Origin: Oscillospiraceae bacterium
GTDB taxonomy: Bacteria; Bacillota; Clostridia; Oscillospirales; CAG-272
DNA length: 33,200 bases
Assembly (NCBI GenBank): GCA_015065215.1
Contig: SVQT01000023.1
Coordinates: 1 to 33,200, forward strand
Reading direction: 5' to 3'
This document shows positions 2,005-21,952 of this stretch, one piece after another. A model generated the notes under the pieces. The model saw only the letters and a program-made list of their open reading frames with translations. It was not told the origin of the DNA and searched no databases. Position numbers and translations under genes: made by a program. How positions within the stretch are numbered: the stretch's first letter is position 1; the number at the start of each line of letters is the position of its first letter.

Positions 2005-2034
2005 GACTTTCTTCCCTTCTATATTATTAGAGGT

Positions 2035-8089: not shown

Positions 8090-8118
8090 ATCATACCGCA
8101 TTTTGATCAAAAATACAA
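8090..8118 (-). promoter_or_regulatory. Promoter of the DUF5685/J-domain operon
   Basis: Minus strand: TTGTAT (8113-8118), 17 bp, TATGAT (8090-8095). The -35 is weak and the -10 is one base from consensus. Predicted transcription start near 8083, about 40 nt before the ATG. Confidence 0.55.
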
Positions 8119-8145
8119 GTGGATTTTGTGGATATACGAAAAAAA

Positions 8146-9039: not shown

Positions 9040-9087
9040 TTGTCCCTCCGTTACGCAATATTGTTATAAAAAACAGCAATATTTCGG

Positions 9088-9116
9088 TTGACTGCGCCAA
9101 GATTTCGTACTATACT
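9088..9116 (+). promoter_or_regulatory. Promoter of the GH4 gene
   Basis: TTGACT (9088-9093), 17 bp, TATACT (9111-9116). Predicted start near 9123, giving a 60-70 nt leader that begins at the inverted repeat described next. Confidence 0.75.
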
Positions 9117-9124
9117 GATTACAA

Positions 9125-9146
9125 CGAACACATTATAACATGTTCG
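9125..9146. promoter_or_regulatory. Candidate operator, inverted repeat CGAACA-N10-TGTTCG
   Basis: Two perfect 6-bp arms (9125-9130 and 9141-9146) are separated by ten AT-rich bases and sit directly at or just after the predicted GH4 transcription start. This position suits a repressor. AraC proteins more often bind direct repeats upstream of -35, so a second regulator or a dual role is possible. Confidence 0.4.
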
Positions 9147-9186
9147 GCGCAAAAATGCAACAAAAACATTTTCGGAGGTATTAAAA

Positions 9187-10524
9187 ATGGGAAAAATCAC
9201 CTTTATGGGTGCCGGTAGCACGGTATTTGCCAAGAACGTTTTGGGCGATTCTATGCTCACGCCGGCGCTTCGCGATTTCGAGATCGCTTTGTACGACATT
9301 GACGAAAAGCGCCTGGAAGAATCCTACACCATGATCACCATCCTCAACAAGAACATCAACGAGGGCCGTGCCAAGATCAGCAAGTATCTGGGCGTTCCCA
9401 ATCGCCGCGACGCGCTCCGTGGCGCTGATTTCGTGGTCAACGCCATTCAGGTGGGCGGCTATGATCCCTGCACCATCACCGACTTTGAGATCCCCAAGAA
9501 ATACGGTCTGCGCCAAACCATTGCGGACACTTTGGGCATCGGCGGTATCTTCCGTGCCCTGCGCACCATCCCTGTTCTCGCCGATTTTGCCGAGGATATG
9601 CAGGCTGTCTGCCCCAATGCCTGGTTCCTCAACTACACCAATCCTATGGCCATGCTGGCAGGCTTTATGCAGCGCTACACCGATGTGAAAACGATCGGCC
9701 TTTGCCACAGCGTCCAGGTCTGCACCAAGAGCCTGTTCAAATCGCTTGGCATGTTAGAGGAGTTCGAAAGCTTTAAGCCCTTGCGCGAGAAGATTGCCGG
9801 CATCAACCACATGGCATGGCTCCTTGAGGTCTACGATGCCAAGGGCAACGACCTCTATCCCGAGATCAAGCGCCGCGCCGCCGAGATCCTGGAGCATCCC
9901 GAAAACTACGAGACCAAGAACCTGGTTCGTCTGGATTACATCCGCCGCTTCGGCTACTACTGCACCGAGTCCAGCGAGCACAACGCCGAGTACAACAACC
10001 TTTACATCAAGTCCAAATATCCTGAGCTGATCGACCGTTACCGCATCCCGCTGGACGAATATCCCCGCCGTTGTGTCAATCAGATCGCCAAATGGGAGCA
10101 GCGCCGCCTGGATTATCTGAACGGTGAGGTCTCTCACGAGCGCACCCATGAATACGCTTCCTACATCATGGAGGCTATGGTGACCGGCAAGCCCTATGAG
10201 ATCGGCGGCAATGTGCTGAATAGCGGTCTCATCACCAATCTGCCCCACAACGCCTGCGTTGAGGTTCCCTGCCTTGTGAACCGCCAGGGTATTCTGCCCA
10301 CCTTTGTCGGCGATCTGCCCGAGATCTGCGCCGCTATGAACCGTACCAACATCAATGTGCAGCTGCTGACCATTGAGGCCGCTGTAACCCGCAAAAAGGA
10401 GGCTGTATACCAGGCCGCCATGCTGGATCCCCACACCTCCTCCGAGCTCTCCATTGACGACATCATCGCCATGTGCGACGAGCTCTTTGAGGCGCACAAG
10501 GATTGGATGCCCCAATATAACTAA
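9187..10524 (+). CDS. melA: GH4 alpha-galactosidase (NAD- and Mn-dependent)
   Basis: A 445-residue protein, the usual GH4 length. The N-terminal Rossmann fold carries GAGST (residues 8-12) for NAD binding. NYTNP at 149-153, the metal-ligand Cys in GLCHS (Cys173) and His208 in GINHMAW are the conserved active-site elements. GH4 enzymes cleave by a redox-assisted elimination/addition, with NAD as a bound cofactor and Mn2+ held by Cys and His. The CHS signature points to the alpha-galactosidase (MelA) branch rather than 6-phospho-glucosidases, which have other residues there. It acts in the cytosol on imported melibiose- or raffinose-type sugars. The ATG follows GGAGG with 8 bases spacing. The AraC gene is divergent and no transporter gene adjoins. 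The exact substrate is an inference; alpha-glucosidase activity is possible. Confidence 0.88.
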   Translation: MGKITFMGAGSTVFAKNVLGDSMLTPALRDFEIALYDIDEKRLEESYTMITILNKNINEGRAKISKYLGVPNRRDALRGADFVVNAIQVGGYDPCTITDFEIPKKYGLRQTIADTLGIGGIFRALRTIPVLADFAEDMQAVCPNAWFLNYTNPMAMLAGFMQRYTDVKTIGLCHSVQVCTKSLFKSLGMLEEFESFKPLREKIAGINHMAWLLEVYDAKGNDLYPEIKRRAAEILEHPENYETKNLVRLDYIRRFGYYCTESSEHNAEYNNLYIKSKYPELIDRYRIPLDEYPRRCVNQIAKWEQRRLDYLNGEVSHERTHEYASYIMEAMVTGKPYEIGGNVLNSGLITNLPHNACVEVPCLVNRQGILPTFVGDLPEICAAMNRTNINVQLLTIEAAVTRKKEAVYQAAMLDPHTSSELSIDDIIAMCDELFEAHKDWMPQYN

Positions 10525-10648: not shown

Positions 10649-12319
10649 TTAAGCCTTAGCCAACACGTAGGTGGTCTTCAAGTTGCTCTCCGCGTCGTAT
10701 GCGGAAATTGCAATCAGAACATTGTTGTTGCTATCGGCCACGTGAACGACGGTTGCGCTTACAACCTTCTCAGCAGTGTAGATCGCGTTGCCGGCAGCGT
10801 TGTACGCGGTAGCCTTAACATTGGTCATATCGCTGGTATCCAGGATTACGAAGAGACCGTTTCTGTAGTAGCTACCCCAGCTGTTGTAGAAAGACAGATT
10901 GGTGGCGTCCTTGGCGATCAGCGTCTTGGTGCTGCCGTCAGCCATAGCCATGATGATGGCGCCGTCCTCATCTTCAAATACTACACCCTCATCGGTACAG
11001 AACAGGATGTCATCCAGCTTCAAAGTAGCCAGATCCAGCTTCTCATTCAGATCCCAGTCGTAGATCTTGTTGTTCATCAGAATGTAGTTGAGAGTGTAAG
11101 AGTCATCATCGCTACTCATCAGAGCCGTCACTTCACCCAGCACCTTGCCCTTCTCGTTGAGCAAGAAGGCCTGGCCTGCCATATTCGCGACGATCCAACG
11201 GCCGGGAGCGACCATTTCAAACTCGCCGAACTGATTCTCGATGGCACCGTCCAGAGTGCCCTCAACCTTACCCTTATTGGAAAGCGAGAGAAGCTTCGTG
11301 GAATACTCATCATAGGATACGCGGCCGTTTTCAATGGGAAGGCTAATAGCGACATTGTCGATCTTCTTGTTCAAGCCCATTTCGGCCAATGCGCCTTCCA
11401 TCTCGACGCCCTTCATATCACGGGCAACGATCTGCATAAACAGATATTCGGTGTCCAGATCCTTAACATCGCCGTTTCTGGCGTTGATCAGCTGAGTCAC
11501 AACGGTGTATTTTTCACCATCTTCGTCGATATAGGTGTAATCCTCAGCCAATGCATCCTCAAGATATCTATACTGTAGCAACACATTGCCATTGTTGAGA
11601 ACGAATGTACGCCCGCTGTCTGCTGCGTAAGCGGGAGCCTTTACGACGGTGATCAAATTCAGATTAGAATCGTAAACGTTGGCCGCGATGCCATTCACTT
11701 CGTAGTAGTAGCCTGCCAGAGTATAATCTACCTCGGGCAGCTCTGCAAAGGGAGAGTAATCGAACACCTTGGAAACGCTACCGTCATCGGCAATGCGGAA
11801 CATCTGACCGTCGATACCGATCAGGTCCAGGGCCATGTAAGGCTCCTCCATGCCGTCCTCCATCATCTCTTCGGTGCCGCTCTTGGTCCAGAAAGCGTTG
11901 CCGTTGATGTCGCACAAGCTAACCTCATAGGTCATATCGCCGTCAGCGGATGCAGGCGCGGTAGCTTTGATAATGTTGATCAACGTGGTGTCCCACTGCT
12001 CCATCGGCATAACCATATAAGAAACGGTCTCAGATTCGGTAGCGGTCCAAACGGTAGCGCCGGTTGCAACGTTATACACCGTCCAAACGGTGTTGTCGTT
12101 GTCATCGACACCCTCAAACACAACCAGGTCACCTGCTTGTTCCTCAATCTCACCCTTGATGTCAACCACAGCGGTCGCGGTCAGGGTGGGGTTCTCGTTG
12201 AGGAATTCTGCCTTTTTGTCAACGATCTTTTTAAACTTCATGGAAGTGGTTCCACAAGAGCACAAGAGCGTGGCAAAGCAAAGAAGTACTGCAACAAGAA
12301 CAAGTATTTTCTTTTTCAC
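10649..12319 (-). CDS. Lipoprotein of unknown function
   Basis: A 556-residue lipoprotein precursor. The signal sequence MKKKILVLVAVLLCFATLLC ends in the lipobox LCSC, with lipidated Cys22. The start is a GTG preceded by AGGAGG at 8 bases. The mature part is acidic and rich in short beta strands with recurring W and Y residues (TVWTVYNVATGATVWTATES; DINGNAFWTKSG), which recalls the blades of a PQQ-like or WD-type propeller. I cannot assign a named domain. It has its own near-perfect promoter and lies between terminators, so it is a single-gene unit. It probably sits on the outer face of the membrane. The role is unknown. Confidence 0.85.
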   Translation of the reverse strand: MKKKILVLVAVLLCFATLLCSCGTTSMKFKKIVDKKAEFLNENPTLTATAVVDIKGEIEEQAGDLVVFEGVDDNDNTVWTVYNVATGATVWTATESETVSYMVMPMEQWDTTLINIIKATAPASADGDMTYEVSLCDINGNAFWTKSGTEEMMEDGMEEPYMALDLIGIDGQMFRIADDGSVSKVFDYSPFAELPEVDYTLAGYYYEVNGIAANVYDSNLNLITVVKAPAYAADSGRTFVLNNGNVLLQYRYLEDALAEDYTYIDEDGEKYTVVTQLINARNGDVKDLDTEYLFMQIVARDMKGVEMEGALAEMGLNKKIDNVAISLPIENGRVSYDEYSTKLLSLSNKGKVEGTLDGAIENQFGEFEMVAPGRWIVANMAGQAFLLNEKGKVLGEVTALMSSDDDSYTLNYILMNNKIYDWDLNEKLDLATLKLDDILFCTDEGVVFEDEDGAIIMAMADGSTKTLIAKDATNLSFYNSWGSYYRNGLFVILDTSDMTNVKATAYNAAGNAIYTAEKVVSATVVHVADSNNNVLIAISAYDAESNLKTTYVLAKA

Positions 12320-12373
12320 AACTTTTTCCTCCTAAAAATTTTTGTCAGAGCCTGAAAAGGTCTCCGCGCTTTC

Positions 12374-12402
12374 ATTATATAATTCCTTTGCCATTTTGTC
12401 AA
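12374..12402 (-). promoter_or_regulatory. Consensus promoter of the lipoprotein gene
   Basis: Minus strand: perfect TTGACA (12397-12402), 17 bp, perfect TATAAT (12374-12379). Expected to be strong. Predicted start near 12367, giving a leader of about 48 nt. Confidence 0.88.
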
Positions 12403-12418
12403 CACCAAAAAGCGAAAA

Positions 12419-12496
12419 AGCGCCAAATTCGCATTGTTTTTGGCCAACCTGCACAAATATATAAAATTTGCACAAAAAATATTGCGAATTTGGCGC
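12419..12496 (-). terminator. Long-loop inverted repeat, probable terminator of the 12505-13512 gene
   Basis: A perfect 15-bp inverted repeat (AGCGCCAAATTCGCA at 12419-12433 and its complement at 12482-12496) encloses a 48-base AT-rich loop with a repeated TGCACAAA. On the minus strand the distal arm is followed by TTTTTCGCTTTTT, which suits termination. The loop is unusually long for a terminator. Confidence 0.55.
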
Positions 12497-12504
12497 TATA
12501 AAAT

Positions 12505-13512
12505 TCATTCATTATAGGAATATGCATAAATTTTTCTACCGGTAGTGATCTTTCCGAATATGTATTTATTGCTGGCTGACTCGTTCATAATATAGATTTT
12601 ACCGTCCAGATACACCAACTCCTCTGACATGGGGGGTGCCTTGATCACCTCGGTTTGACAGCTGCTTTCCAAATAATAAATGGGCAGCTCCGAAAAAGAA
12701 AAGTCCACGCCGTCCTTGGTCGTACCGGCAAAAGCCCTGACATCAGGTTCCGCGATTTTATTTACATCATACACCAGCAGCTTTGAGCTTGCCATACCGT
12801 AAGAGGTGGAAAGTACAATTTTACCGTTATCATTGATGCACATCCCCTGCACTTGATCGGGTGTGGAAATGACTGCCCTCATAACCGGATCGATGCCGAA
12901 CGCGGCGTTAGCGTCCAATTGGAACACCGCCATCATCGAGCGGTTCTGATCGCCGCCGGGGGTCGCCATGCGCTGATACGCTTCGGTTTCATAATTCCCC
13001 GGTCGATAAAAAGAGCCAACCAGAATATAGCCGTTGTAGGTGTAGCAATAGGCAGGGTCGTTATAGGTTTCTACCGTACCAAGGCATTTTGCGCTCTTTG
13101 CGCCGGCAAGAATTTCCTGATAAGAAAAGACGTCCAGCCCCTTACTGCCTGTAATGTAAATGTAGTCACCGAAATGCGCGATGCCGCCGGTATGTCCCCG
13201 ATAATCGGTGCCGTCCGCCTTTTTAAGCTCGGTATAGCTCTCGCTGCCGTCGTCACGGAGCAAATACACACGGGAGGCAGCCTCCCCCTTCATATAGCCG
13301 GCAACAAGAAACGCCTCTTCACCCTCCACATAGTCAAAGCCCTGCTGCACAAAGCCGTCACGAATGCCGGGCATCTTCATTTCCCCATCCGCCTTACGGT
13401 AAAAAGCGGCGTGACGAATACCGTCTACCAGCTTAAAGCCAAGCAGGATCAGCAAAACAAGGCATATTATGCCGATCAGAACACCAAGTAGGATCTTGAC
13501 AGATTTTTTCAT
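12505..13512 (-). CDS. Membrane-anchored extracytoplasmic protein, propeller-like, function unknown
   Basis: A 335-residue protein. One N-terminal transmembrane segment (VKILLGVLIGIICLVLLILL, about residues 5-25) anchors it, with the remainder outside. The outer part reads as successive beta-strand groups (GHTGGIAHFGDYIYITGSKG; MCINDNGKIVLSTSYGMASS; EELVYLDGKIYIMNESASNK), a layout typical of beta-propellers or quinoprotein-like folds. The ATG follows AAAGGATACAAT. It has its own perfect promoter and is divergent from tRNA-Ser. No catalytic motif is visible and I do not recognise a named family. Confidence 0.85.
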   Translation of the reverse strand: MKKSVKILLGVLIGIICLVLLILLGFKLVDGIRHAAFYRKADGEMKMPGIRDGFVQQGFDYVEGEEAFLVAGYMKGEAASRVYLLRDDGSESYTELKKADGTDYRGHTGGIAHFGDYIYITGSKGLDVFSYQEILAGAKSAKCLGTVETYNDPAYCYTYNGYILVGSFYRPGNYETEAYQRMATPGGDQNRSMMAVFQLDANAAFGIDPVMRAVISTPDQVQGMCINDNGKIVLSTSYGMASSKLLVYDVNKIAEPDVRAFAGTTKDGVDFSFSELPIYYLESSCQTEVIKAPPMSEELVYLDGKIYIMNESASNKYIFGKITTGRKIYAYSYNE

Positions 13513-13550
13513 ATTGTATCCTTTCTGTATTTCCGATTCGTTTATCTATG

Positions 13551-13579
13551 ATTATAGCAAGATCTCAAGCTTTTGTCAA
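13551..13579 (-). promoter_or_regulatory. Consensus promoter of the 12505-13512 gene
   Basis: Minus strand: TTGACA (13574-13579), 17 bp, TATAAT (13551-13556), both perfect. Confidence 0.88.
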
Positions 13580-13647
13580 CTTGAGCTCCGGCAAGCGCCG
13601 CACCCGCAATTTTTTTCAAAATAAAGCAACTTTTTTTCACAATCCTC

Positions 13648-13676
13648 TTGACAAACCAACAAAAATTTGATATGAT
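13648..13676 (+). promoter_or_regulatory. Promoter of tRNA-Ser
   Basis: TTGACA (13648-13653), 17 bp, TATGAT (13671-13676). The tRNA begins 13 bases after the -10 box. Confidence 0.88.
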
Positions 13677-13689
13677 ATACAAGTCGTTT

Positions 13690-13781
13690 GGAGAGATGGC
13701 TGAGCTGGTCTAAGGCGCACGACTGGAAATCGTGTGTAGGCTAATACCCTACCGAGAGTTCGAATCTCTCTCTCTCCGCCA
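13690..13781 (+). tRNA. tRNA-Ser(GGA)
   Basis: A 92-nt class II tRNA with encoded CCA. The acceptor stem is GGAGAGA/TCTCTCC, and the anticodon arm is CACGA-CTGGAAA-TCGTG with anticodon GGA at 13725-13727. The long variable arm is characteristic of tRNA-Ser, and the T arm is GAGAG-TTCGAAT-CTCTC. It decodes UCC and UCU. It has its own promoter and terminator. Confidence 0.97.
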
Positions 13782-13787
13782 TGGCAG

Positions 13788-13815
13788 GCGGCCCCCAATC
13801 GGGGGCCGCTTTTTT
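13788..13815 (+). terminator. Terminator of tRNA-Ser
   Basis: A 9-bp GC-rich stem GCGGCCCCC/GGGGGCCGC with loop AATC is followed by six T residues. It starts 6 bases after the tRNA 3' end. Confidence 0.9.
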
Positions 13816-13902
13816 GTCGTGGCGGAGGGATGAGAGTGAGAACCGCGAGCGCGTGGGCGCGAGCGGCAAGATGCTGTTTTTGCGCAAAAGAGTCGGGGAT
13901 AC

Positions 13903-13929
13903 AAAAAGGGCTTGCGAGAGCAAGCCCTT
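13903..13929 (-). terminator. Terminator of the 13941-14915 lipoprotein gene
   Basis: Stem AAGGGCTTGC/GCAAGCCCTT with a GAGA loop. On the minus strand the T run follows directly. It lies 11 bases after the stop codon. Confidence 0.85.
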
Positions 13930-13940
13930 GTTATTTGAAA

Positions 13941-14915
13941 TTACATTTGCGCGTTCATGGCGTTCATGTACGCTCTGCTGCCAATCGAGCAGTAACGATC
14001 AAATTCCTCCGCCAAATCACCGGTAATGGTCTGCCCTTCCGCCTTTTTGGCTTCAAACGCGGTCATCAGAGCGTCAGCAGCCGATGTGAATTCGGGCGTA
14101 AATTCACTGCGCTTATAAAACTTACCGTCCGCGCTCATTTTCTGCTCACTGTAGCTCTTGTCACCTCCGCCTTGGATCATCACCAGATGAAAGGAGGTCA
14201 CACCCGCATCTCCCTCAAAATCATATCCCAAAACAAAATGATAATATGCGGTATTTGACAGCTCCGGCATATCCAAAATCATTTCGAGATAGATTTTACC
14301 GTTTTCTGTATCCAGTCGCGGCAGCAATGTGATTTCAACAGTCACAGGCTGCGACATCAGGGAATTGGACTGAATGGTAAAGCTGACCGCATCGGTTGTA
14401 ACGATAAAGGCGTCATTCTCGTAATATTCGCCGATCATATTGACCAGCGCGAACATGGTACAGGCATCCGCCTTGAGAGATTTGAGGGTAGAGCCACCAG
14501 TAATTTCAGGGAGCTCACCGGGGAGGTTGAAGGATAACGGGCTCAGCAGCAAGGAAGCCGCGCCTGATGTTGGCTGAGGCTGCGCCTCTTGCGTGGGATC
14601 TCCCGCTCCCAAGACCTGCCAGGCGGTCTTTGCCGCCGTCTTATAAATGGTCGCAAGATCCGCTTTTTCATATTCCGCTTTTCCACACACCGAGCATACA
14701 CCGTTTGCAAACATATGTGTCTGCGCCACCGGGATCTCACCGGTCTCTACCGTCTCTCCGCATTCGGTACACGCCTTGTGCTTGGTCCCCTTTGCTACAC
14801 AGGTTGCCTCTAAATCGGTCACCCAATCACCGGGCGTATGAGTATGTCCCTTGCACGCCACACAAGAAAGGCACAAAAGCAATGCCGCAACAACAGCCAC
14901 AATTCTTTTCATCAT
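13941..14915 (-). CDS. Probable lipoprotein with Cys/His module at its N-terminus
   Basis: About 324 residues. AAAGGAG lies only 2 bases before the ATG at 14921 but 8 bases before the ATG at 14915, so I choose the latter. The signal sequence ends LLLCLSCVACK; the likely lipidated Cys is the last one, although the box is not ideal. Residues of about 25-80 form a Cys/His module (ATCVAKGTKHKACTECG; HMFANGVCSVCGKAEY), the same theme as in the two large surface proteins at 1-5871. The remaining 230 residues, after a Gln/Pro/Ala-rich linker, are a mixed alpha/beta domain I do not recognise (SFTIQSNSLMSQPVTVEITL). It has its own promoter and terminator. It is probably extracytoplasmic; the function is unknown. 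Confidence 0.82.
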   Translation of the reverse strand: MMKRIVAVVAALLLCLSCVACKGHTHTPGDWVTDLEATCVAKGTKHKACTECGETVETGEIPVAQTHMFANGVCSVCGKAEYEKADLATIYKTAAKTAWQVLGAGDPTQEAQPQPTSGAASLLLSPLSFNLPGELPEITGGSTLKSLKADACTMFALVNMIGEYYENDAFIVTTDAVSFTIQSNSLMSQPVTVEITLLPRLDTENGKIYLEMILDMPELSNTAYYHFVLGYDFEGDAGVTSFHLVMIQGGGDKSYSEQKMSADGKFYKRSEFTPEFTSAADALMTAFEAKKAEGQTITGDLAEEFDRYCSIGSRAYMNAMNAQM

Positions 14916-14959
14916 CTTCATTTCTCCTTTGGGTGTATTTGCATATCAATTGTAGCTTT

Positions 14960-14988
14960 ATTATAACACTCCAATGTGCAAAAATCAA
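14960..14988 (-). promoter_or_regulatory. Promoter of the 13941-14915 gene
   Basis: Minus strand: TTGATT (14983-14988), 17 bp, TATAAT (14960-14965). Confidence 0.75.
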
Positions 14989-15001
14989 TAATGGGTAGAA
15001 G

Positions 15002-15038
15002 AAAAAGCACCGCCCGATTGAGATCGGCGGTGCTTTTT
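15002..15038 (-). terminator. Terminator of the rplU-prp-rpmA operon
   Basis: Stem AAAAAGCACCGCC/GGCGGTGCTTTTT, extended by GAT/ATC with a one-base bulge. It lies 11 bases after the rpmA stop. The outer A/T runs would allow termination in either direction. Confidence 0.88.
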
Positions 15039-15048
15039 CTCTTGAAAA

Positions 15049-15327
15049 TCAGTCAGCGTAAACGCTAACCTGCTTCTTGTCCTTGGTCTTCTGCTCGAAC
15101 TTGACCTTACCCTCGATGAGAGCGAACAGGGTGTCGTCCTTACCAATGCCGACGTTGTTGCCGGGATGGATCGCAGTGCCTCTCTGGCGAACGATAATGC
15201 TACCGGCAGTAACGGTCTGGCCGTCCGCTGCCTTCACACCAAGACGCTTAGACTCGCTATCGCGGCCGTTCTTGGTGGAACCAACGCCCTTCTTGTGGGC
15301 GAAGAACTGCAAACTAATTCTCAACAT
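15049..15327 (-). CDS. rpmA: 50S ribosomal protein L27 (precursor with cleavable N-terminus)
   Basis: A 92-residue protein that is clearly L27 ([33 protein letters not shown]). It carries the Firmicutes-type N-terminal extension MLRISLQFF before AHKKG. In Staphylococcus this extension is removed by the Prp protease so that the mature N-terminus can reach the peptidyl-transferase centre. The prp gene lies immediately upstream. An AGGAGG site precedes the ATG. Confidence 0.98.
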
Positions 15328-15397
15328 GGTTCGTAATCCTCCTTATCAAATTGGCGCGCATACATGATGCGACGCGGGTTCCGTGCCATTGCACGGT

Positions 15398-15778
15398 TTA
15401 CACAAAATCCTTGTCCTCGACCTTTATGACGAGGCCGCCATCACCGGTAAACTCATACAAATCGCCGTGCAGGAGCATGTCCTCCAGCATGGCGTAATAA
15501 GTAAGGAACAGACCGGAAACAGCAAACCGTACCCGCTCATCCTCCTCATAGGCAGGAAGGGCGGAACGGGAGCGAACGGTGATCACGGTATCATCATCGT
15601 TGATGTCATAGCGAACCTCGCCATGATATACATCCTCGATGGCATTCACGATATACATGGTCAGCGAGGAAAGCATGGCGCAAAAGGGATCGCTCCCCCA
15701 TTCGGCATAACCGACATGGCCCTTTTCCTCAAACCCGTAAAAGATACCGTCGCTTCTGAAAAATGTGATGGTCGTCAT
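15398..15778 (-). CDS. prp: Ribosomal-processing cysteine protease Prp
   Basis: A 126-residue protein of the YsxB/DUF464 family. The catalytic His and Cys lie in GHVGYAEWGSDPFCAMLSSL (His21, Cys33), the conserved spacing of Prp. It removes the N-terminal extension of L27, which the next gene encodes with a matching LQFF extension. The start lies 8 bases after the rplU stop with its GAAGG site inside the end of rplU, so translation is probably coupled. The gene order rplU-prp-rpmA is conserved in Firmicutes. Confidence 0.95.
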   Translation of the reverse strand: MTTITFFRSDGIFYGFEEKGHVGYAEWGSDPFCAMLSSLTMYIVNAIEDVYHGEVRYDINDDDTVITVRSRSALPAYEEDERVRFAVSGLFLTYYAMLEDMLLHGDLYEFTGDGGLVIKVEDKDFV

Positions 15779-15786
15779 AGCTCGGA

Positions 15787-16098
15787 TCAGCCTTCGATGG
15801 CAGTGATCTGAACCTTCGTGTAGGGCTGGCGATGACCCATCTTCTTCTTCTCGTTCTTCTTGGACTTGTACTTGAAGACAACAATCTTCTTGCCCTTGCC
15901 CTCTTTGACAACGGTCGCGGTAACCTTGGCACCCTCAACAACGGGAGTACCAACCTTCAGAGCGCCGTCCTTGGACAGAGCCTTAACGCTGGTGAACTCT
16001 ACGGTCTCACCCTCAGCAACGCCGAGCTTTTCAACGAAGATAACGTCGCCCTCGTTGACTTTGTACTGCTTTCCGCCGGTTTCGATAATTGCGTACAC
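15787..16098 (-). CDS. rplU: 50S ribosomal protein L21
   Basis: A 103-residue protein ([20 protein letters not shown] to KVQITAIEG), the standard L21 length. I take the GTG at 16098, since family members begin [11 protein letters not shown] and AGAGAGGTG is suitably placed upstream. A GTG nine bases earlier would add MLF and overlap that site. L21 binds 23S rRNA and needs L20 for assembly. It is the first gene of the rplU-prp-rpmA operon, behind an L21-type leader. Confidence 0.97.
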
Positions 16099-16182
16099 GA
16101 AAAGCACCTCTCTTTCTTTATAGACTCGCTGATTTCAGGCGGTGTCGCAAGCAACACACTTTGATAGGCCTTTTTCAAGCGG
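16099..16182 (-). promoter_or_regulatory. Probable L21 leader RNA (ribosomal-protein autoregulation)
   Basis: The 5' leader between the promoter and rplU reads, on the minus strand, GGCCGCTTGAAAAAGGCC, then a hairpin GTGTTGCTTGCGACAC, then a purine-rich ribosome site. Position, length of about 85 nt and the two-hairpin layout agree with the L21 leader family known upstream of rplU in Firmicutes. I identify it from context and structure; a covariance-model scan would settle it. Confidence 0.6.
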
Positions 16183-16188
16183 CCATTC

Positions 16189-16218
16189 ATTATACCATAA
16201 TCAGAAGATGGATGTCAA
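16189..16218 (-). promoter_or_regulatory. Promoter of the rplU operon
   Basis: Minus strand: perfect TTGACA (16213-16218), 18 bp, perfect TATAAT (16189-16194). Confidence 0.88.
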
Positions 16219-16241
16219 GGCTTTTTTGATTTATTTTTGAT

Positions 16242-16706
16242 TTATTTTTCGATTTTTTTGCGGCGACCGGCAAAAAGCGCAGAAAGTGCCCAAACGGTAC
16301 AGGAAAACAACAAAATGCCGCAAGCGGCGCCGGCACTGTCCAACAGCACATCTCGAAAAGAGGCAACCCGCCCGGGGAAAAATTTTTGAATGCTCTCATC
16401 GGCACAAGCGACAAGAAAGCAGAGCGGCAAGCTGATGATGCGGTAATGGGTAAATTCAAAAAGCCATAATGTAAGCGAGACCCAGCTCCCTAATATGAAA
16501 TAACCTATAAAATGTCCGATTTTGCGCACCGTTATATGGGCAAATTGAAAGGAGATACCCCAATCAGAAAGTATTTGATTCAAAAAAGCCAACGCTTTGC
16601 CGCTGGTAATGGCAGAGCGTTCGCCGTCTGCCATAGAGAAGTGCCAGATATACAGACAGCCCAGAATCGCTGCCGCCAGCACCACCCACCGCCCGATTTT
16701 TCGCAC
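16242..16706 (-). CDS. VanZ family membrane protein
   Basis: A 154-residue protein with four hydrophobic segments at about residues 7-22, 66-86, 90-105 and 122-145. The family motifs are present: RKIGHFIGYFILG and DESIQKFFPGRVASFRDVLL-DSAGA. VanZ was named for low-level teicoplanin resistance, but most family members, including chromosomal ones like this, have no proven role. The start is a GTG with GGGAGG at 8 bases. The gene precedes the rplU promoter in the same direction with no clear terminator between, so some read-through into rplU is possible. Confidence 0.88.
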   Translation of the reverse strand: MRKIGRWVVLAAAILGCLYIWHFSMADGERSAITSGKALAFLNQILSDWGISFQFAHITVRKIGHFIGYFILGSWVSLTLWLFEFTHYRIISLPLCFLVACADESIQKFFPGRVASFRDVLLDSAGAACGILLFSCTVWALSALFAGRRKKIEK

Positions 16707-16745
16707 TTTCCGCGCCTCCCACTTTCCCTAAATTGCAAAAAGCCC

Positions 16746-16774
16746 TTGCCTTTTCATCTGAAATATGTTATACT
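16746..16774 (+). promoter_or_regulatory. Promoter of the ancestral tRNA-Arg
   Basis: TTGCCT (16746-16751), 17 bp, TATACT (16769-16774), about 40 bases before the 5' tRNA half at 16815. No promoter is evident directly before the intact tRNA at 16994, so that tRNA probably depends on read-through from here. Confidence 0.6.
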
Positions 16775-16812
16775 GTTTAGCGATCATCTATGCCTTCTTC
16801 CATAATTTATAT

Positions 16813-16853
16813 ACGCCTGCATAGTTAAATGGATATAACAAGCCCCTCCTAAG
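16813..16853 (+). pseudogene. 5' half of a split tRNA-Arg(CCU)
   Basis: This stretch repeats the 5' part of the intact tRNA at 16994 almost exactly: the acceptor strand GCCTGCA, the D arm GTTAAATGGATATAAC, and the anticodon loop CTCCTAA ending at 16852. After 16853 the tRNA sequence stops and is replaced by unrelated DNA. Its anticodon-stem strand AGCCC pairs with GGGTT of the 3' half at 20494-20537 (one G-U) but mismatches GGGAT of the intact copy. Confidence 0.8.
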
Positions 16854-16993
16854 TAGCAGGTCTATCCCATAAGATAGATTGAAACCCTATGAAGATAGAC
16901 TAAAACACTACAAGGATTTTGTGTCCTAAACTCGCCAAACGCAGTTTTGTACACCCTTTGTACGCCCAAGCGAAAATCACAATTAAATAGCAC
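16854..16993. other. Non-coding spacer between the 5' tRNA half and the intact tRNA
   Basis: This 140-bp stretch has no credible gene. It holds two similar 14-mers, aagatagattgaaa at 16871 and aagatagactaaaa at 16892, spaced 21 bp, and a repeated TTGTAC near 16955-16973. CTTGTACACCC recurs near the right end of the element (about 20347). Such repeats may be recombinase arm sites, which is only an inference. Confidence 0.4.
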
Positions 16994-17068
16994 GCCTGCA
17001 TAGTTAAATGGATATAATAATCCCCTCCTAAGGGATAGTTATGGGTTCGATTCCCGTTGCGGGTGCCA
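16994..17068 (+). tRNA. tRNA-Arg(CCU)
   Basis: A complete 75-nt tRNA with encoded CCA. The acceptor is GCCTGCA/TGCGGGT (two G-U pairs, one at 1-72). The D stem is GTTA/TAAT, and the anticodon arm is ATCCC-CTCCTAA-GGGAT with anticodon CCT at 17027-17029. The variable loop is AGTT and the T arm ATGGG-TTCGATT-CCCGT. It reads AGG codons. It lies inside the split ancestral tRNA and is presumably the functional copy. The G-U closing pair and the lack of a near promoter are unusual. Confidence 0.9.
17025..17068 (+). repeat. attL-type direct repeat (3' part of tRNA-Arg)
   Basis: From the anticodon loop to the CCA end this 44-bp segment matches 20494-20537 at 42 positions. The differences are at 17035 (A versus T) and 17057 (T versus C). 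A core running from a tRNA anticodon loop to the 3' end is the usual attachment site of tRNA-targeting integrases. Confidence 0.75.
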
Positions 17069-17076
17069 CTCTCTTG

Positions 17077-17106
17077 AAAGGTAGTCAAAAAAATGACTAC
17101 CTTTTT
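17077..17106 (+). terminator. Terminator after tRNA-Arg
   Basis: Stem AAAGGTAGTC/GACTACCTTT with an A-rich 8-base loop, ending in five T residues. It begins 8 bases after the tRNA. Confidence 0.85.
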
Positions 17107-17125
17107 GTTACGATACTTTTTAATA

Positions 17126-17154
17126 TTGAAAAAAGTGGTTATTTATGATAGAAT
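17126..17154 (+). promoter_or_regulatory. Promoter of the DUF2971 gene
   Basis: TTGAAA (17126-17131), 17 bp, TAGAAT (17149-17154). Confidence 0.65.
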
Positions 17155-17187
17155 ATATACATATCAACGATCAAGAGGATTTAAACA

Positions 17188-18210
17188 ATGAATAACGATG
17201 AAAGAAAGATTTTCTGGGACAATTTGTGTTCTTTAGATGCCGACAGTAGCTCTAAGGACATTTCAAGATTTTTTGATTCGATTAAATATCCAAGATTTAT
17301 TTGTAGATATAGACCAATAACTATGCGTTCTATAGAAGCATTACAGACCAACAAAATGTTTTTCTCTTCCGCATACTATTATGATGATCCGTTTGACACA
17401 TATCTGCATATTGATTGGAAACGCATTGAAAGCATTATAAATTCTATAGACTTGCAATCCCCAAAAGCGTTCGAATATTTTCAGAAGGCTTGCGAACAGT
17501 TTAATATTAGACCAAGCGAAGAATTTAAATGTTTGTTTGAGTCGTTAACACACGGGGATTTATTGAAGGTTGCAATTTCAACTTTGAATGAAAAAATTAG
17601 ACCACAAATGCAAAAATACTCTTATTCCATTTGTTTTTCAGAAGATCCTCTAAACGAAACTCTTTGGTTAAAATATGCGAGTAATCACACAGGCTTTTGC
17701 CTTGTGTATGATTTGGCAGATGAGCCGAAATACAGATGCGGAAAAGAAGAAAAATGCAAAATTTGTGCTAATAATCAGAGGGCGTCAATTTACCCTGTTT
17801 ACTACTCAAGTGAAAAATACGATGCTACAAATTATGCTTTTAGCCAAAGTGTTTTTTCATTTATAGCAAACGATTTGAACAATGAAGAACTTGCCAAACG
17901 ATACATATCAGATATTCCTATGTCATGGGAAGCCGAAAAAGTGGCTTTAATCAAACACAAATGTCATGAATATGACTCTGAATGGAGAATTATCTCGCAT
18001 AACCGTTTCGCAGAAAACACCTTTATTAAGTGGATACCCTCTAAAATTATTATAGGGTTAAAAACCGAACAAACAGAGGAAACGTTAATTGTTCGTGCTG
18101 CTATGACTGCAGGAATTGAACATATTTACAAAGCATATATTTCGCCTACAGATGATTTTGATGCATACGAGCTTAACAAAGAGCAGATTTCGCAAATAAT
18201 TAGCAGGTGA
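17188..18210 (+). CDS. DUF2971 domain protein (island gene 1)
   Basis: A 340-residue protein. DUF2971 features appear in order: FICRYRPITMRSIEALQTNK near 37-56, FFSSAYYYDDPFD at 58-70, CFSEDPLNETLWLKYASNHT from 149, GFCLVYDL, and MSWEAEKVALIKHKCHEYDS with EWRII near 250-275. The domain function has not been established. It contains CGKEEKCKICANNQ, a Cys set that may bind metal. DUF2971 genes often occur as accessory genes in variable islands, and some lie near defence genes. The ATG follows AGAGGA at 8 bases. It is AT-rich compared with all chromosomal neighbours, in keeping with transfer. The next gene encodes a GmrSD-like protein with its own promoter; joint function is an inference. Confidence 0.85.
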   Translation: MNNDERKIFWDNLCSLDADSSSKDISRFFDSIKYPRFICRYRPITMRSIEALQTNKMFFSSAYYYDDPFDTYLHIDWKRIESIINSIDLQSPKAFEYFQKACEQFNIRPSEEFKCLFESLTHGDLLKVAISTLNEKIRPQMQKYSYSICFSEDPLNETLWLKYASNHTGFCLVYDLADEPKYRCGKEEKCKICANNQRASIYPVYYSSEKYDATNYAFSQSVFSFIANDLNNEELAKRYISDIPMSWEAEKVALIKHKCHEYDSEWRIISHNRFAENTFIKWIPSKIIIGLKTEQTEETLIVRAAMTAGIEHIYKAYISPTDDFDAYELNKEQISQIISR

Positions 18211-18244
18211 TTAAATCATCTTTTGGTCAACTTGACTGCTTTCT

Positions 18245-18268
18245 CGCAAGGTGGGTATCCCACTTGCG
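18245..18268 (+). other. Bulged hairpin after the DUF2971 gene
   Basis: CGCAAGGTGGG (18245-18255) pairs with CCCACTTGCG (18259-18268) with one bulged G and a 3-base loop. It is not followed by a T run. It may protect the 3' end or form part of a compound structure with the next hairpin. Confidence 0.4.
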
Positions 18269-18276
18269 AAACTCTC

Positions 18277-18322
18277 GGAGAGGGGTTAAATTGTCAAAGT
18301 GATGGCAATTTGACCCCTCTCC
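18277..18322. other. Strong 17-bp stem-loop between the two island genes
   Basis: GGAGAGGGGTTAAATTG (18277-18293) pairs with CAATTTGACCCCTCTCC (18306-18322), 17 pairs including one G-U, around a 12-base loop. No T run follows on the plus strand. It could be a weak terminator, a processed RNA or a protein-binding site. Confidence 0.5.
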
Positions 18323-18387
18323 TTATCCTGTTCCCAAAATTGCATTACGTAAATGAAGATGGATTGGTTATATATTTATCAAAGTGC

Positions 18388-18416
18388 TTGCAATAAATGT
18401 ATATTTATAGTATAAT
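18388..18416 (+). promoter_or_regulatory. Promoter of the DUF262 gene
   Basis: TTGCAA (18388-18393), 17 bp, perfect TATAAT (18411-18416). Confidence 0.75.
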
Positions 18417-18449
18417 AAGTTAGATAATGTCACTTATAAGGAGGCATAT

Positions 18450-20282
18450 ATGTCCTATTATACAATTGAAACGTGGACGATTAGAGATGTGGCTAAAGCT
18501 TTTAATTTTAGAGACACATCAACGTCATTTACTGATCGAAAAGTTGTTATTCCTATTTTTCAACGTGGACTTCGTTGGGAACCCAAAAAGCGCAGTCAGT
18601 TTATAGATTCTCTTGACAGAGGGTATCCGTTTGGCTCATTACTTTTTGCAAAACAAGAAGGAATCAATAAGTATTCGGTTGTCGATGGTTTACAACGTGG
18701 GTCCACTGCTTGTGATTATGTATTTAATCCTCTCGCCAAAAATAATATTAATAGTGTAGATGAGGAAGTTTTAGATGCTATAAGAATAGCTTTGTTTCCC
18801 GATAACGAATCTAAATCTATAAACAAGAAAATTGAGGAACAAATACTTTCATATTTCTATGAAAAGAAGCGCTTTGATTGCGTGGATTTATCTGATTTAG
18901 CCGACATAATATACGATAGTTTTCCAAACACCGAAGACTATAGAATATGTAGAACAAAAATCAAAAATGCGATCTCTCCTTTTTATGCCAAACGAAAAGA
19001 AAAATACGATAATATTTGCGCCTCTAGCGTTCCTATTGTTGTATATTCGGGGCCACAAGAATTGTTGAATGAAATATTCAATAGGATTAACAAAAATGGT
19101 ACTCCTCTAAATGATTTTGAAATTTATTCCGCAACTTGGAGTCACAAACCAATTCTTGTCAATAACACAGAAGTTATAGAAAAAGTGATTAAAAAGTATT
19201 GGGCATTATCCGATCTAGGTTATGAAATAGACGGATTCGATGCAACATTAATGCGTACAAAAAAAGAATTAACAGCTTTTGAATTCTTATTTGGGTTAGG
19301 AAAGTATTGGTATGATAAGTTTGACTGTTTAAAAGTAGAATCCAAAAACAAAGATGACGATGTGAATGAAATCAGTTTTGAAATCGTTGATGCTTGTATA
19401 AATCAAACCAAATCCATTTCAAATTTGGATAAAGTTCTTCAACGTTTGAACATTAATAAGTTACAGCGTCGAATAGAGGAGTCTATAACTTATGTGTCCA
19501 ATGCTATCGCAGTTGTTAGTAGTTTTAAGGGTAATAAACGCAAGTTTAATGTTCTACACTCAAAGTATCAGATTATTTCTTTAATATCCTTTACATTTCG
19601 AGAAATGTATGACATAAACAACCTTGAAACTAAAAAAGATGATTGGAATAGAAAATCTCAGATTATAGCGAAGAAATTGCTATCGCATTACGTTGCAGAC
19701 ATAATATCTGGAGAATGGCATGATGGCGGTGCTGCAAAAGTGTACTCATTTACTAAAGAACGAAAATATTTAGAAGATATCTCGTTAGATCGTTGGGGAT
19801 CATTGCTTGACAATCATTATTTTGCTCAATTGCAAAACAAGCAAAACGAAAGGTTTACCAATCCGGTGAATGCGGATTGTGTAATTTTAAACTGTATTTA
19901 TGTAACATTATTTACAGCAAGTGATCAGTTATCTTCTCAAAAATTTGACATTGAACATTTGGCTACTAAAGAACGCATGAAAAATATTTTAAATAATTTC
20001 AATGACTTAAAATTGCCAATCTGTTGTATTGCTAATTTGTGCTATCTTCCTGAAGATATTAATAGGGGCAAGAAAGAAAAGACAATATATGAGGCTACAA
20101 ATCTTTCTTTACCAATTTCTGTTATTGAAGAAAAGTACAGTTTTACAGTAGAAGATGATTTGAAATGGATTACATATCCGTACACATCCGAAGATCAAAC
20201 ACTTTTCGTGAGCAATTATGAAAAATTTATTGCTTCAAGATATTCGAAAATAAAAGCGCGTTTTTTAGAAATGTTTAAATAA
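18450..20282 (+). CDS. DUF262/DUF1524 (GmrSD-like) protein, candidate anti-phage nuclease
   Basis: A 610-residue protein. The N-terminal DUF262 (ParB/Srx-like) domain shows VVIPIFQRGLRWEPKKRSQF at 32-51 and VDGLQR at 78-83, where the family usually has DGQQR; this half corresponds to the NTP-dependent GmrS part. The C-terminal part has an HNH-type DUF1524 pattern: DIEH (His503), ANL (Asn529) and INRGKKEK (Asn538), corresponding to the GmrD nuclease. GmrSD enzymes are type IV restriction systems that cut DNA with modified, often glucosylated, cytosines. A fused single chain is common. The Q to L change in the DGQQR motif is unusual and may alter NTP use. It has its own promoter and an AAGGAGG ribosome site. 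The AT-rich composition and place in a tRNA-bounded island support a mobile defence role. Confidence 0.85.
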   Translation: MSYYTIETWTIRDVAKAFNFRDTSTSFTDRKVVIPIFQRGLRWEPKKRSQFIDSLDRGYPFGSLLFAKQEGINKYSVVDGLQRGSTACDYVFNPLAKNNINSVDEEVLDAIRIALFPDNESKSINKKIEEQILSYFYEKKRFDCVDLSDLADIIYDSFPNTEDYRICRTKIKNAISPFYAKRKEKYDNICASSVPIVVYSGPQELLNEIFNRINKNGTPLNDFEIYSATWSHKPILVNNTEVIEKVIKKYWALSDLGYEIDGFDATLMRTKKELTAFEFLFGLGKYWYDKFDCLKVESKNKDDDVNEISFEIVDACINQTKSISNLDKVLQRLNINKLQRRIEESITYVSNAIAVVSSFKGNKRKFNVLHSKYQIISLISFTFREMYDINNLETKKDDWNRKSQIIAKKLLSHYVADIISGEWHDGGAAKVYSFTKERKYLEDISLDRWGSLLDNHYFAQLQNKQNERFTNPVNADCVILNCIYVTLFTASDQLSSQKFDIEHLATKERMKNILNNFNDLKLPICCIANLCYLPEDINRGKKEKTIYEATNLSLPISVIEEKYSFTVEDDLKWITYPYTSEDQTLFVSNYEKFIASRYSKIKARFLEMFK

Positions 20283-20493
20283 TAAAAATATTTTGAAATC
20301 AAAATAAATAATTACCAATTTTCTATCTAGATATTGCTGTCCACCCCTTGTACACCCGTACACTACAAAGCACCGCAAAAACCACCTATAAACCCACGAC
20401 CCACCAAGCGTAAAATCTGTCTTTTGAGTGGATTTTACACTCATTTCGCAAGAAAAACACCCACACGCAGATAGGCACGAACACCTATGAAAA
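20283..20493. other. Non-coding right end of the island
   Basis: About 210 bp after the DUF262 gene hold no gene. Features seen: an inverted repeat GTAAAATC/GATTTTAC (20410-20417, 20431-20438), and TTGTACACCC resembling the left-end spacer. The base composition changes from AT-rich to more balanced toward the tRNA fragment. Confidence 0.5.
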
Positions 20494-20537
20494 CTCCTAA
20501 GGGTTAGTTATGGGTTCGATTCCCGCTGCGGGTGCCA
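20494..20537 (+). pseudogene. 3' half of the split tRNA-Arg (attR)
   Basis: It begins in the anticodon loop (CTCCTAA), then GGGTT, AGTT, ATGGG-TTCGATT-CCCGC and TGCGGGT-G-CCA. It has no 5' half next to it. GGGTT pairs with AGCCC of the 5' half at 16813-16853, so the two halves are remains of one tRNA. A weak hairpin followed by a T run (about 20542-20569) may be the ancestral terminator. Confidence 0.85.
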
Positions 20538-20586: not shown

Positions 20587-21402
20587 GCGAAGGAAAGAGG
20601 GGCGTTCTTTTCCTGCAATGCTCTGACTACAGTAAATCTCTCTAACACACTGACCTCTATCGGTTCGTATGCGTTTTTCCTATCCGGCGCGCTTGCCAAT
20701 CTTTCTCTGCCCGCCACGCTGACCAGGCTGGGTGATGGAGCCTTTCAATACTGTCAATCGCTGAAATCCGTCACCGTTCCGGCAGGACTTACCGAATGGG
20801 GGCAGTTCGCATTTACCTCATCCGGTTTAGAGAGCGTGGTTTTGGAGGAGGGACTGACCGAGATCGGAGAATTTGCTTTTTCCAACACCAAATTGCAATC
20901 TGTCGTGCTGCCGAGTAGCATTCGCACCATCGAAGCAAGCGCTTTCGGCAGTTGCAGCAAATTGGAAACGATCACGCTAAACGAGGGCTTGCAAATAATC
21001 AAAAATGAGGCGTTTTCCTGGTCCGAATTAACGTCCATCACACTCCCTTCTACCATAACAAGCGTGGGGGAACGCGCCTTTGAAAAATGTAGTTGTTTGG
21101 CAGCGGTTTCACTGAACGAGGGACTGCAAAGCATTGGCGACTTCGCCTTTGATTCCGCCAAATCACTGACCGAGATCGCGATCCCCTCCACCGTTACGGA
21201 TATGGATGAATCGGTATTCAACGGCTGCACAGAATTGACTGCCGTAAAATTTGAGAGCAACGCACCCGAAGCATACGAAAACGAAAAAGCCGGCGTTGTT
21301 CACGGCTCTTCTTACGGTGTTTCCTACACCGTCTATTACCACGAGGGCGCAACCGGATTTACGCCCGATGATTGGTGCGGTTACGACACGGCGATTTGGT
21401 GA
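20587..21402 (+). pseudogene. 5'-truncated BspA-like leucine-rich repeat protein
   Basis: The open frame begins right after a TGA at 20584 and encodes leucine-rich repeats of the LRR_5/BspA type from its first residues (GAFFSCNALTTVNLSNTLTS, then IGSYAF). About eight repeats of 22-23 residues follow. The C-terminal part, YTVYYHEGATGFTPDDWCGY, is a usual ending of such proteins. There is no signal peptide, no ribosome site and no early start codon; the first usable start is a GTG at 20836 in mid-repeat. The N-terminus has therefore been lost, leaving a 3' remnant of a surface protein. It starts 50 bp after the attR tRNA fragment, next to TGTCATTCTGAGCGAAG, which resembles a widespread intergenic repeat. 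Expression from the GTG cannot be excluded. Confidence 0.75.
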
Positions 21403-21439: not shown

Positions 21440-21952
21440 ATGAGAAAGAAACTGTTTTGGATCATCTACTACGGTATTACAATTAGTGGCATTATCGTGG
21501 CTACCATCCGGCTTCGCGAGCACGTCAATTTTAATTGGTTTTCGGCTTTTCCAATCGTCAGTGCGCTCCTTTTGATCGCCCAGTTTTTCTTCTTACCCAG
21601 CAGATTAAGAATAAGACTATGGGTGGAGTCTTTCGAGCGCGGGCAATACACACATGGGTATAATACAGTATTGTCCCCTGAAAACGAAGAAGAGCTTTTT
21701 CAGGGAGAACTTCCCTTTGCACGTATGGCAGCCAAAATCGCTCTTTTTTGTATCCCTTTTGTCATTATGTTCGTTTGTTTCTTTTCAAAATCTGCAAAAA
21801 TTGTTGTAAGCTTTATGGCACTGCTCCCTTACATTATAATGTATACCAATTTGATTATTTCCTGCGTCAAAGAAGCCAAAGAAAACGACAAAAAACGGGC
21901 GAGAGAATTAGAGGAACAAAAGAACAAAGAAAAAAACGGTTACATAAAGTAA
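21440..21952 (+). CDS. Membrane protein of unknown function
   Basis: A 170-residue protein with four predicted transmembrane segments: about 5-22, 36-54, 97-115 and 118-140. The C-terminal tail is highly charged and coiled-coil-like (EAKENDKKRARELEEQKNKE). The ATG follows GGAAGGAGGAGG, a very strong ribosome site. It lies 37 bp after the LRR remnant in the same direction and may once have been its operon partner. No family is recognised. Confidence 0.8.
   Translation: MRKKLFWIIYYGITISGIIVATIRLREHVNFNWFSAFPIVSALLLIAQFFFLPSRLRIRLWVESFERGQYTHGYNTVLSPENEEELFQGELPFARMAAKIALFCIPFVIMFVCFFSKSAKIVVSFMALLPYIIMYTNLIISCVKEAKENDKKRARELEEQKNKEKNGYIK

What the first reader, a model, noticed from the sequence alone, without database searches (positions are those of the whole stretch)
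16813..20537. A tRNA-Arg(CCU) gene split at its anticodon loop by an insert that carries a replacement tRNA
Three tRNA-Arg segments are seen: a 5' half (16813-16853), a full tRNA (16994-17068) and a 3' half (20494-20537). All share the core CTCCTAAG. Anticodon-stem pairing is decisive: AGCCC of the 5' half pairs with GGGTT of the far 3' half, ATCCC of the middle copy pairs with its own GGGAT, and the crossed combinations mismatch. The outer halves are therefore one ancestral gene, broken by 3648 bp. Most tRNA-targeting elements restore the gene at the junction; here a separate, diverged tRNA lies 179 bp inside. The ancestral promoter (16746-16774) still points at the dead 5' half, and the new tRNA has no clear promoter.
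Basis: partly seen in the sequence, partly recalled or inferred. Interest (0 to 1): 0.8.

Follow-up and report, generated by a model that had tools for sequence, protein, structure and literature searches.

The report
Gene cassette carrying a spare tRNA
A small mobile gene cassette has landed inside a bacterial tRNA gene, broken it, and brought a complete substitute tRNA with it; related cassettes with other cargo genes, and no tyrosine integrase gene found in them, sit in the same tRNA gene in other gut bacteria.

Summary
A tRNA-Arg(CCU) gene is cut in its anticodon loop (core CTCCTAAG at 16846, 17025 and 20494). The outer halves pair with each other and the middle copy is complete. The nearest relative with an intact site (G001) has the outer type of tRNA behind the same promoter region.

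The insert belongs to a family of small cassettes (mostly 0.7-3.9 kb between cores) in gut Clostridia MAGs, found at this tRNA. They share a ~170-bp right end (R), a ~100-bp module (M, once in nearly every cassette) and diverse cargo. Pfam found no tyrosine integrase among 52 ORFs from 20 loci. One subtype (the window and seven other genomes) also carries a 140-bp spacer (S) and a complete tRNA, with core1-core2 spacing of 177-180 bp. In the five loci where it could be tested, outer halves pair perfectly and crossed halves mismatch.

R and S both carry TTGTACACCC pairs and GATAG...AA repeats, so R-core-S looks like a full tyrosine-integrase attP. The substitute tRNA probably uses the host promoter by read-through. 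The integrase must then act in trans; none was identified. Closest analogues: integrase-less tmRNA islands and integrase-less integron arrays.

The parts
16746..16774 (+). Host tRNA promoter-like site (TTGCCT-17-TATACT); region shared with the empty site in G001
16815..16853 (+). Broken 5' half of the host tRNA-Arg(CCU), ending in core1 (16846-16853)
16854..16993 (+). Spacer S: presumed P' arm of attP; GATAG...AA repeats at 16873 and 16894, TTGTACACCCTTTGTACGCCC at 16947-16967, then a leader resembling native tRNA leaders (by eye)
16994..17068 (+). Complete replacement tRNA-Arg(CCU) with core2 (17025-17032)
17069..17107 (+). Stem-loop with T run after the tRNA (read by eye, not flagged by the scan); similar sequence follows the tRNA part in G015, G005 and G167
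17188..18210 (+). Cargo gene A: DUF2971, resembles PADLOC candidate family PDC-S31
18240..18347 (+). Module M: conserved inverted repeat, second stem, conserved tail CTTATCCTGTTCCC
18450..20282 (+). Cargo gene B: GmrSD_N (DUF262) protein, 610 aa
20324..20493 (+). Right end R: presumed P arm of attP; arm pair at 20337-20357, 16-pair inverted repeat, GATAGGCACGAACACCTATGAAAA beside the core
20494..20537 (+). Remnant 3' half of the host tRNA-Arg(CCU), starting with core3 (20494-20501)

Best explanation
The insert is a non-autonomous mobile gene cassette that integrated by conservative, tyrosine-recombinase-type strand exchange in the 7-base anticodon loop of the host tRNA-Arg(CCU) gene. Its attP was R-core-S, with arm-type repeats on both sides. 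Because S does not encode a tRNA 3' half, integration truly breaks the host gene; the cassette makes up for this by carrying a complete tRNA-Arg(CCU) right behind S. That tRNA sits about 220 bp downstream of the host promoter with no terminator-like site found between, so it is most likely transcribed by read-through and freed by RNase P. Cargo (a DUF2971 gene and a GmrSD-type gene, both resembling defence proteins) lies between the tRNA and R. The cassette encodes no integrase and no transfer gene, so it must be moved in trans. Shown: the split gene, the complete middle tRNA, the recurring R, S and M parts, near-identical cargo in different genera, and no tyrosine integrase among the cassette ORFs scanned. 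Inferred: the identity of attP, read-through expression, trans mobilisation, and a defence role for the cargo.
For: Stem pairing decides which halves belong together in the 5 loci where it could be judged (window, G004, G167, L138, L146). Empty site in G001. M: 9 of 59 genomes including the own one, one copy each, all beside this tRNA. Arm pattern TTGTACACCC-N-TTGTACACCC with up to 2 mismatches: 13 of 22 genomes, every hit in a cassette at this tRNA or its remnant, 0 in the reversed-pattern control. Core1-core2 spacing 177-180 bp in the eight loci with complete S. G017 and G167 (different genera) share cargo gene A at 93% over 817 bp; as a rough yardstick, the window's flank query matches other genera of the family at 68-79% where the match exceeds 250 bp. 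All 52 ORFs of at least 85 aa that one search lists for 20 cassette loci were scanned with Pfam: 0 Phage_integrase, one serine recombinase (G294). None of the PF00589 matches in 23 genomes, 17 of them with R, S or M, lies between the tRNA and R.
Against: No integrase that recognises R-core-S was found: R and S patterns gave 0 viral contigs, R, S and M gave no convincing match in phages and plasmids, and clustering of 60 recombinase frames from those 23 genomes gave no cassette-specific group. No excision or circular form has been seen. Many cassettes lack S and follow the ordinary scheme in which only the 3' half is replaced (G015, G017, G027, G162, G177, G192, L144, L150), so the window could be the product of two events. 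R is not tied to a tRNA remnant in every hit: the G294:C51 copy has no 3' half behind it, and a 37-bp partial hit in G003 shows no tRNA nearby. Expression of the middle tRNA is untested.
Confidence: 0.75

Rival explanations
1. Two-step composite: an earlier element left the footprint 5' half-core-S-tRNA, and a later ordinary cassette (3' half, cargo, M, R) integrated into that second tRNA.
For: Ordinary S-less cassettes with the same R and M exist. The stretch after the middle tRNA resembles that of the S-less cassette G015b and of G005. Loci with partial S and weak or unfound R exist (G298, G204).
Against: Inner tRNA halves match each other without mismatch in the anticodon stem in all eight loci with complete S, although exchange at core2 could have mixed them; selection might explain this. 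No undegraded footprint without a cassette was found.
Confidence: 0.25
2. Decayed ICE or prophage: the cassette is the remnant of one large element that has lost its integrase and transfer genes.
For: Related replacement events with heterologous tRNA-Arg(CCU) do have a tyrosine integrase beside the tRNA (G076 full-length frame, G016 C-terminal fragment).
Against: The cassettes compared mostly keep both ends, are small, differ in cargo and nearly always hold one M, which does not look like independent decay; no tyrosine integrase domain was found in the 52 ORFs.
Confidence: 0.2
3. Local tandem duplication of the tRNA gene followed by an unrelated insertion.
For: 5' tRNA fragments are duplicated in tandem in G036 and G010 without any R match.
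Against: Homologous S with near-constant spacing in several genera, and stems that assign the middle copy to a different source than the outer halves.
Confidence: 0.03

Closest known systems
tRNA/tmRNA-targeted genomic islands, anticodon class (Islander; PMC4383910, abstract and passages read)
   Same: Target in a tRNA anticodon loop, repeated core, 3' fragment left at the far end, attP of about 250 bp.
   Different: There the island carries only a fragment that restores the gene, and the search filters test for an integrase gene. Here a whole tRNA is carried and no integrase is present.
Dehalococcoides ssrA islands (PMC3146451, passages read)
   Same: Tandem islands at one tmRNA gene; the paper counts 31 islands, 15 without an integration module, which it calls possible cis-mobilizable elements.
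   Different: CcrB-like (serine, recalled) integrase, T-loop site, direct repeat of the tmRNA 3' end, islands with integrase present in the same genus.
CALINs, integron cassette arrays without integrase (PMC11389934, passages read)
   Same: Small cargo cassettes with a shared recombination site, integrase supplied in trans.
   Different: Site here is a tRNA anticodon loop with long arms, not attC; an additional conserved module M; usually one cassette, two in G015 and L151.
Tycheposons (PMC10872708, passages read; original paper not held)
   Same: Cargo-carrying elements bordered by a tRNA.
   Different: 4-200 kb with a tyrosine recombinase according to the passages read; the cassettes here are mostly 0.7-3.9 kb without one.

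Membership tests
Classical tRNA-targeted island | Core shared by both junctions within a tRNA gene | tested here: met
   CTCCTAAG at 16846, 17025, 20494
Classical tRNA-targeted island | Host tRNA restored at the junction by an element-borne fragment | tested here: not met
   Host 5' half is followed by S, not by a 3' half
Classical tRNA-targeted island | Integrase gene within the island | tested here: not met
   Two ORFs of at least 100 aa in the insert (non-overlapping list), neither an integrase; no PF00589 match on the window contig C68
Integron / CALIN cassette | attC site (IntI substrate) | not tested
   No attC search was run; the inverted repeats of M and R were not compared with attC models
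Cis-mobilizable element (CIME-like hitchhiker) | Both attachment ends kept, no integrase, no transfer genes | tested here: met
   R, S and cores kept; the two genes are DUF2971 and GmrSD_N
Cis-mobilizable element (CIME-like hitchhiker) | Excision and integration by a helper in trans | not testable with these tools
   Needs reads across an attP junction or a bench assay
Tycheposon | Tyrosine recombinase and 4-200 kb size | tested here: not met
   3.65 kb, no recombinase

The most novel reading that the evidence does not exclude
An integron-like cassette economy built on an essential tRNA: the tRNA-Arg(CCU) anticodon loop acts as the landing site, cassettes with a common R end and M module carry interchangeable gene modules, and one subtype serially replaces the host's tRNA-Arg(CCU) with a mobile tRNA. 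M might be a cis-acting origin (transfer, replication or packaging) that makes the cassettes complete hitchhikers.
Probability: 0.35. Interest if true: 0.8.

Novelty: new variant of a known kind. Interest (0 to 1): 0.62.

Why it matters
The usual rule is that an element entering a tRNA gene rebuilds it at the junction. Here the gene is really destroyed and a whole substitute is imported, in at least eight genomes, so the only tRNA-Arg(CCU) detected in this host (in an 84.6% complete genome) is mobile-element DNA. The cassettes also form a compact vehicle for small gene modules, several of them resembling defence genes, for which my paper searches found no description. They raise a testable question: which integrase moves them? 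Island finders that test for an integrase gene, such as Islander, would be expected to pass over them.

Tried and rejected
Helper integrase: 79 PF00589 matches in 23 genomes. I fetched 60 regions covering 62 of them, 51 regions from the 17 genomes with R, S or M and 9 from the 6 others. 60 frames passed my motif filter and were clustered; at least two fetched regions (G204:C15, G015:C8) gave none. The one broad cluster (22 of 23 genomes, with and without cassettes) is XerC/XerD-like; its G000 member scores below the cut-offs of both NCBIfam models. No other cluster exceeds 4 members. The G076 integrase beside a heterologous tRNA has no close relative among these frames (at most 34.5%, over 145 aa). 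The genomes behind L138-L151 were not searched with PF00589.

Helper in viruses or plasmids: R, S and M patterns gave 0 viral contigs. The arm pattern gave 2 viral contigs without tRNA or further R or S likeness, judged chance. BLAST of R, S and M against phages and plasmids gave nothing except one phage match to bases 41-72 of the S query (E 0.04).

M as an origin: its tail CTTATC reminded me of a pC194-type nick site (recalled, not tested); kept only as an idea. Its first inverted repeat shows covariation (4 pairs with two-sided changes, 0 of 500 shuffles as high), but a DNA hairpin or protein site could too; RNAalifold paired the second stem only in part. One of the 21 M copies (G298) was left out of that alignment.

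Pattern for other CCU tRNAs: my gap range of 14-24 excluded the native type (13), so it tests only longer-gap types: none in G000, heterologous ones at this site in G016 and G076. Native-type copies in G000 rest on the BLAST.

Nesting in L151: two R ends and two remnant starts fit tandem insertion, but the upstream 5' fragments are scrambled (their cores lie 188 bp apart), so I do not claim nesting. G036 and G010 5' fragments lack the core and look like local duplications.

Right flank: no DNA match of the window's right flank in G001. A 30% protein homologue of ORF 21440-21952 lies about 0.95 kb behind the intact tRNA in G020, and a 54% homologue of ORF 20836-21402 about 4.8 kb behind it in G013. 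The empty site rests mainly on the left flank.
Full report
The window contains one complete tRNA-Arg(CCU) at 16994-17068 (Rfam 58.9 bits), a 5' half ending in CTCCTAAG at 16846-16853 and a 3' half starting with the same eight bases at 20494. The anticodon stem of the outer halves pairs (AGCCC/GGGTT, 0 mismatches), as does that of the middle copy (ATCCC/GGGAT); both crossed combinations mismatch once. The window is contig C68 of an 84.6% complete, 85-contig genome in which BLAST with the stretch 16740-17110 finds only the window's own copies.

Comparison with relatives confirms the direction. Left-flank genes are conserved in the genus genomes compared. In G001 the flank is 91% identical over 1057 bp, the promoter region matches (83% over window 16740-16853), and the tRNA is intact with AGCCC/GGGTT, nearer to the outer halves (1 and 4 differences) than to the middle copy (3 and 6). 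Of six sites of the genus without R or M match, four are nearer to the outer halves (G001, G019, G020, G011) and two (G018, G013) to the middle copy. Apart from G001 these are about equally distant at the flank (75-80%), so the native gene evidently varies and only G001 carries much weight.

The insert is one of a family. Counting the window's own genome, its right end matches in 7 of 21 genomes of the genus and 11 of 246 of the family sample. A pattern of its terminus found 14 stretches in the species-genome collection, all MAGs named Clostridia or Oscillospiraceae bacterium; 11 of the 14 titles name sheep, goat or deer gut. Five of them (L140, L141, L142, L145, L149) have the contig lengths of loci already met. 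In 20 aligned copies R (about 170 bp) holds a TTGTACACCC-type pair (degenerate in L144), a 16-pair inverted repeat and GATAG...AACA..T.TGAAAA or close variants directly at the core. In the repeat 95.9% of cells pair and 8 cells have two-sided changes, 0 of 500 shuffles as high; by number of pairs with such changes (3) the control is weaker, 64 of 500. Left out of that alignment were the copies of G167, G009, G111, G235, G298, G003, the first G015 cassette and G294:C12, most of them partial or weaker matches.

There are two subtypes. In S-less loci the left junction is a normal restored tRNA: host 5' half plus element 3' half, with a remnant 3' half behind R. Clear cases are G015 (two cassettes in tandem), G017, G027, G162, G177, G192, L144 and L150. 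In S-bearing loci the host 5' half runs into a 140-bp spacer S and then a complete tRNA: window, G004, G167, G294, L138, L139, L146 and L151. Their core1-core2 spacing is 177-180 bp. G204 (shortened S, about 156 bp by the match ends, no R found) and G298 (partial S and R) look decayed. Core2-core3 lengths are 0.7-3.9 kb, except 0.35 kb in G298 and 8.5 kb in G294.

Stem pairing could be judged with distinct halves in five loci (window, G004, G167, L138, L146): outer with outer and inner with inner give 0 mismatches, and every crossed combination fails in the anticodon or the acceptor stem (the acceptor stem was not scorable in L146). L139 (5' half cut by the contig end), L151 (identical anticodon stems, scrambled 5' halves, one acceptor mismatch in the outer pair) and G294 (no 3' remnant) could not decide the matter.

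S repeats the features of R: the TTGTACACCC pair and two GATAG...AA repeats. Over 22 genomes the pair pattern with up to two mismatches occurs in 13, every time in a cassette at this tRNA or its remnant, and never in the reversed-pattern control. R-core-S therefore looks like a full tyrosine-integrase attP with arms on both sides, of the order of the ~250 bp given for attP in PMC4383910 (abstract and passages read). This is inference from layout; no recombination has been shown.

The scan finds no promoter-like site in S on the + strand, and no terminator-like site on that strand between the host promoter (16746-16774) and the tRNA; promoter-like matches in the region as a whole are no more than in shuffles (16 against 15.4). 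The simplest reading is read-through from the host promoter. [quoted passage not shown] The last bases of S resemble native tRNA leaders by eye, as if the tRNA had been picked up with its leader. In G294 the inner tRNA is of a clearly different type from the outer half.

All 20 cassette loci compared carry a ~100-bp module M in the same orientation, 21 copies in all, one in each of the two L151 cassettes; the short first cassette of G015 has none. A genome search found M in 9 of 59 genomes including the own one, only beside this tRNA. Its first inverted repeat is kept by two-sided changes. In G017 and G167, from different genera, cargo gene A is 93% identical over 817 bp and identity runs into M, while the gene B proteins do not match at 1e-8, so M sits at a switch point. 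Its function is unknown; an origin or a regulatory site are options.

Cargo is diverse. Window: DUF2971 (PADLOC candidate PDC-S31) and GmrSD_N. Elsewhere: Fic (PDC-S04 match), DUF4379, SHOCT, DUF4238, DUF4352, HNH, an N6 methylase with a specificity subunit, zinc ribbons, and many unknowns. PADLOC was run on 12 of these proteins. All 52 ORFs listed were scanned with Pfam: none is a tyrosine integrase. G294 holds a large serine recombinase in its 8.5-kb insert, beside a GmrSD_N-HNH gene and an EcoRI-type methylase. PF00589 matches in 23 genomes fall outside the cassettes, and clustering gave no cassette-specific integrase. The helper remains unknown.

The same anticodon loop is hit by other elements. 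In G016 and G076 the host 5' half is followed by a complete heterologous tRNA-Arg(CCU) with a tyrosine integrase beside it; in G076 a second broken heterologous 5' half lies in between. In G035 the contig ends inside such a tRNA. In G059 the gap between tRNA and remnant holds a thiamine-biosynthesis operon (ThiF, ThiH, ThiE, ThiD, ThiC and thiamine diphosphokinase above NCBIfam cut-offs) without integrase, with a right end also seen in G030.

Placed against what is known, the anatomy breaks two defining features of classical tRNA islands: restoration at the junction and an integrase inside. It fits the loose class of cis-mobilizable hitchhikers, as proposed for the 15 of 31 Dehalococcoides ssrA islands without integration module (PMC3146451, passages read) and comparable to CALINs (PMC11389934, passages read). 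Nine paper searches listed, by title and start of abstract, no description of a tRNA-island family that imports a complete tRNA or of these cassettes. The library lacks most subscription papers, including the original tycheposon paper and Williams 2002.

Noticed in passing
L083 (G059), reverse strand, oriented 1420-9298: A 7.8-kb block with a thiamine-biosynthesis operon (NCBIfam: ThiF, ThiH, ThiE, ThiD, ThiC, thiamine diphosphokinase) lies between the complete tRNA-Arg(CCU) and a remnant 3' half, without integrase and with a different right end (CTCAGTAT|CTCCTAAG), also seen in G030 (L084).
   Followed up: partly
L073 (G016), L100 (G076), L101 (G035): The native tRNA-Arg(CCU) is broken at the same loop and followed by a heterologous tRNA-Arg(CCU) (cut by the contig end in G035); in G076 two in series with a full-length tyrosine integrase frame beside them.
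   Followed up: partly
window 18240-18347 and 19 homologues (alignment A1): Module M, a conserved element with an inverted repeat and a conserved tail CTTATCCTGTTCCC, present once in nearly every cassette; function unknown.
   Followed up: partly
L075 about 1780-1930, L127 4960-5116, L124 10190-10430, L125 1-130: A structured-looking leader recurs, by eye, in front of cassette genes in several genomes; it may be an undescribed RNA.
   Followed up: no
L080 (G036) 7683-8011; L068 (G010) oriented 1830-2010: Tandem duplications of the tRNA 5' part and its leader without the core, apparently unrelated to cassette ends.
   Followed up: no
L133 (G294) 10765-17311: Large serine recombinase just inside the S-bearing left end, with a GmrSD_N-HNH gene and an EcoRI-type methylase, in an 8.5-kb insert.
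   Followed up: partly
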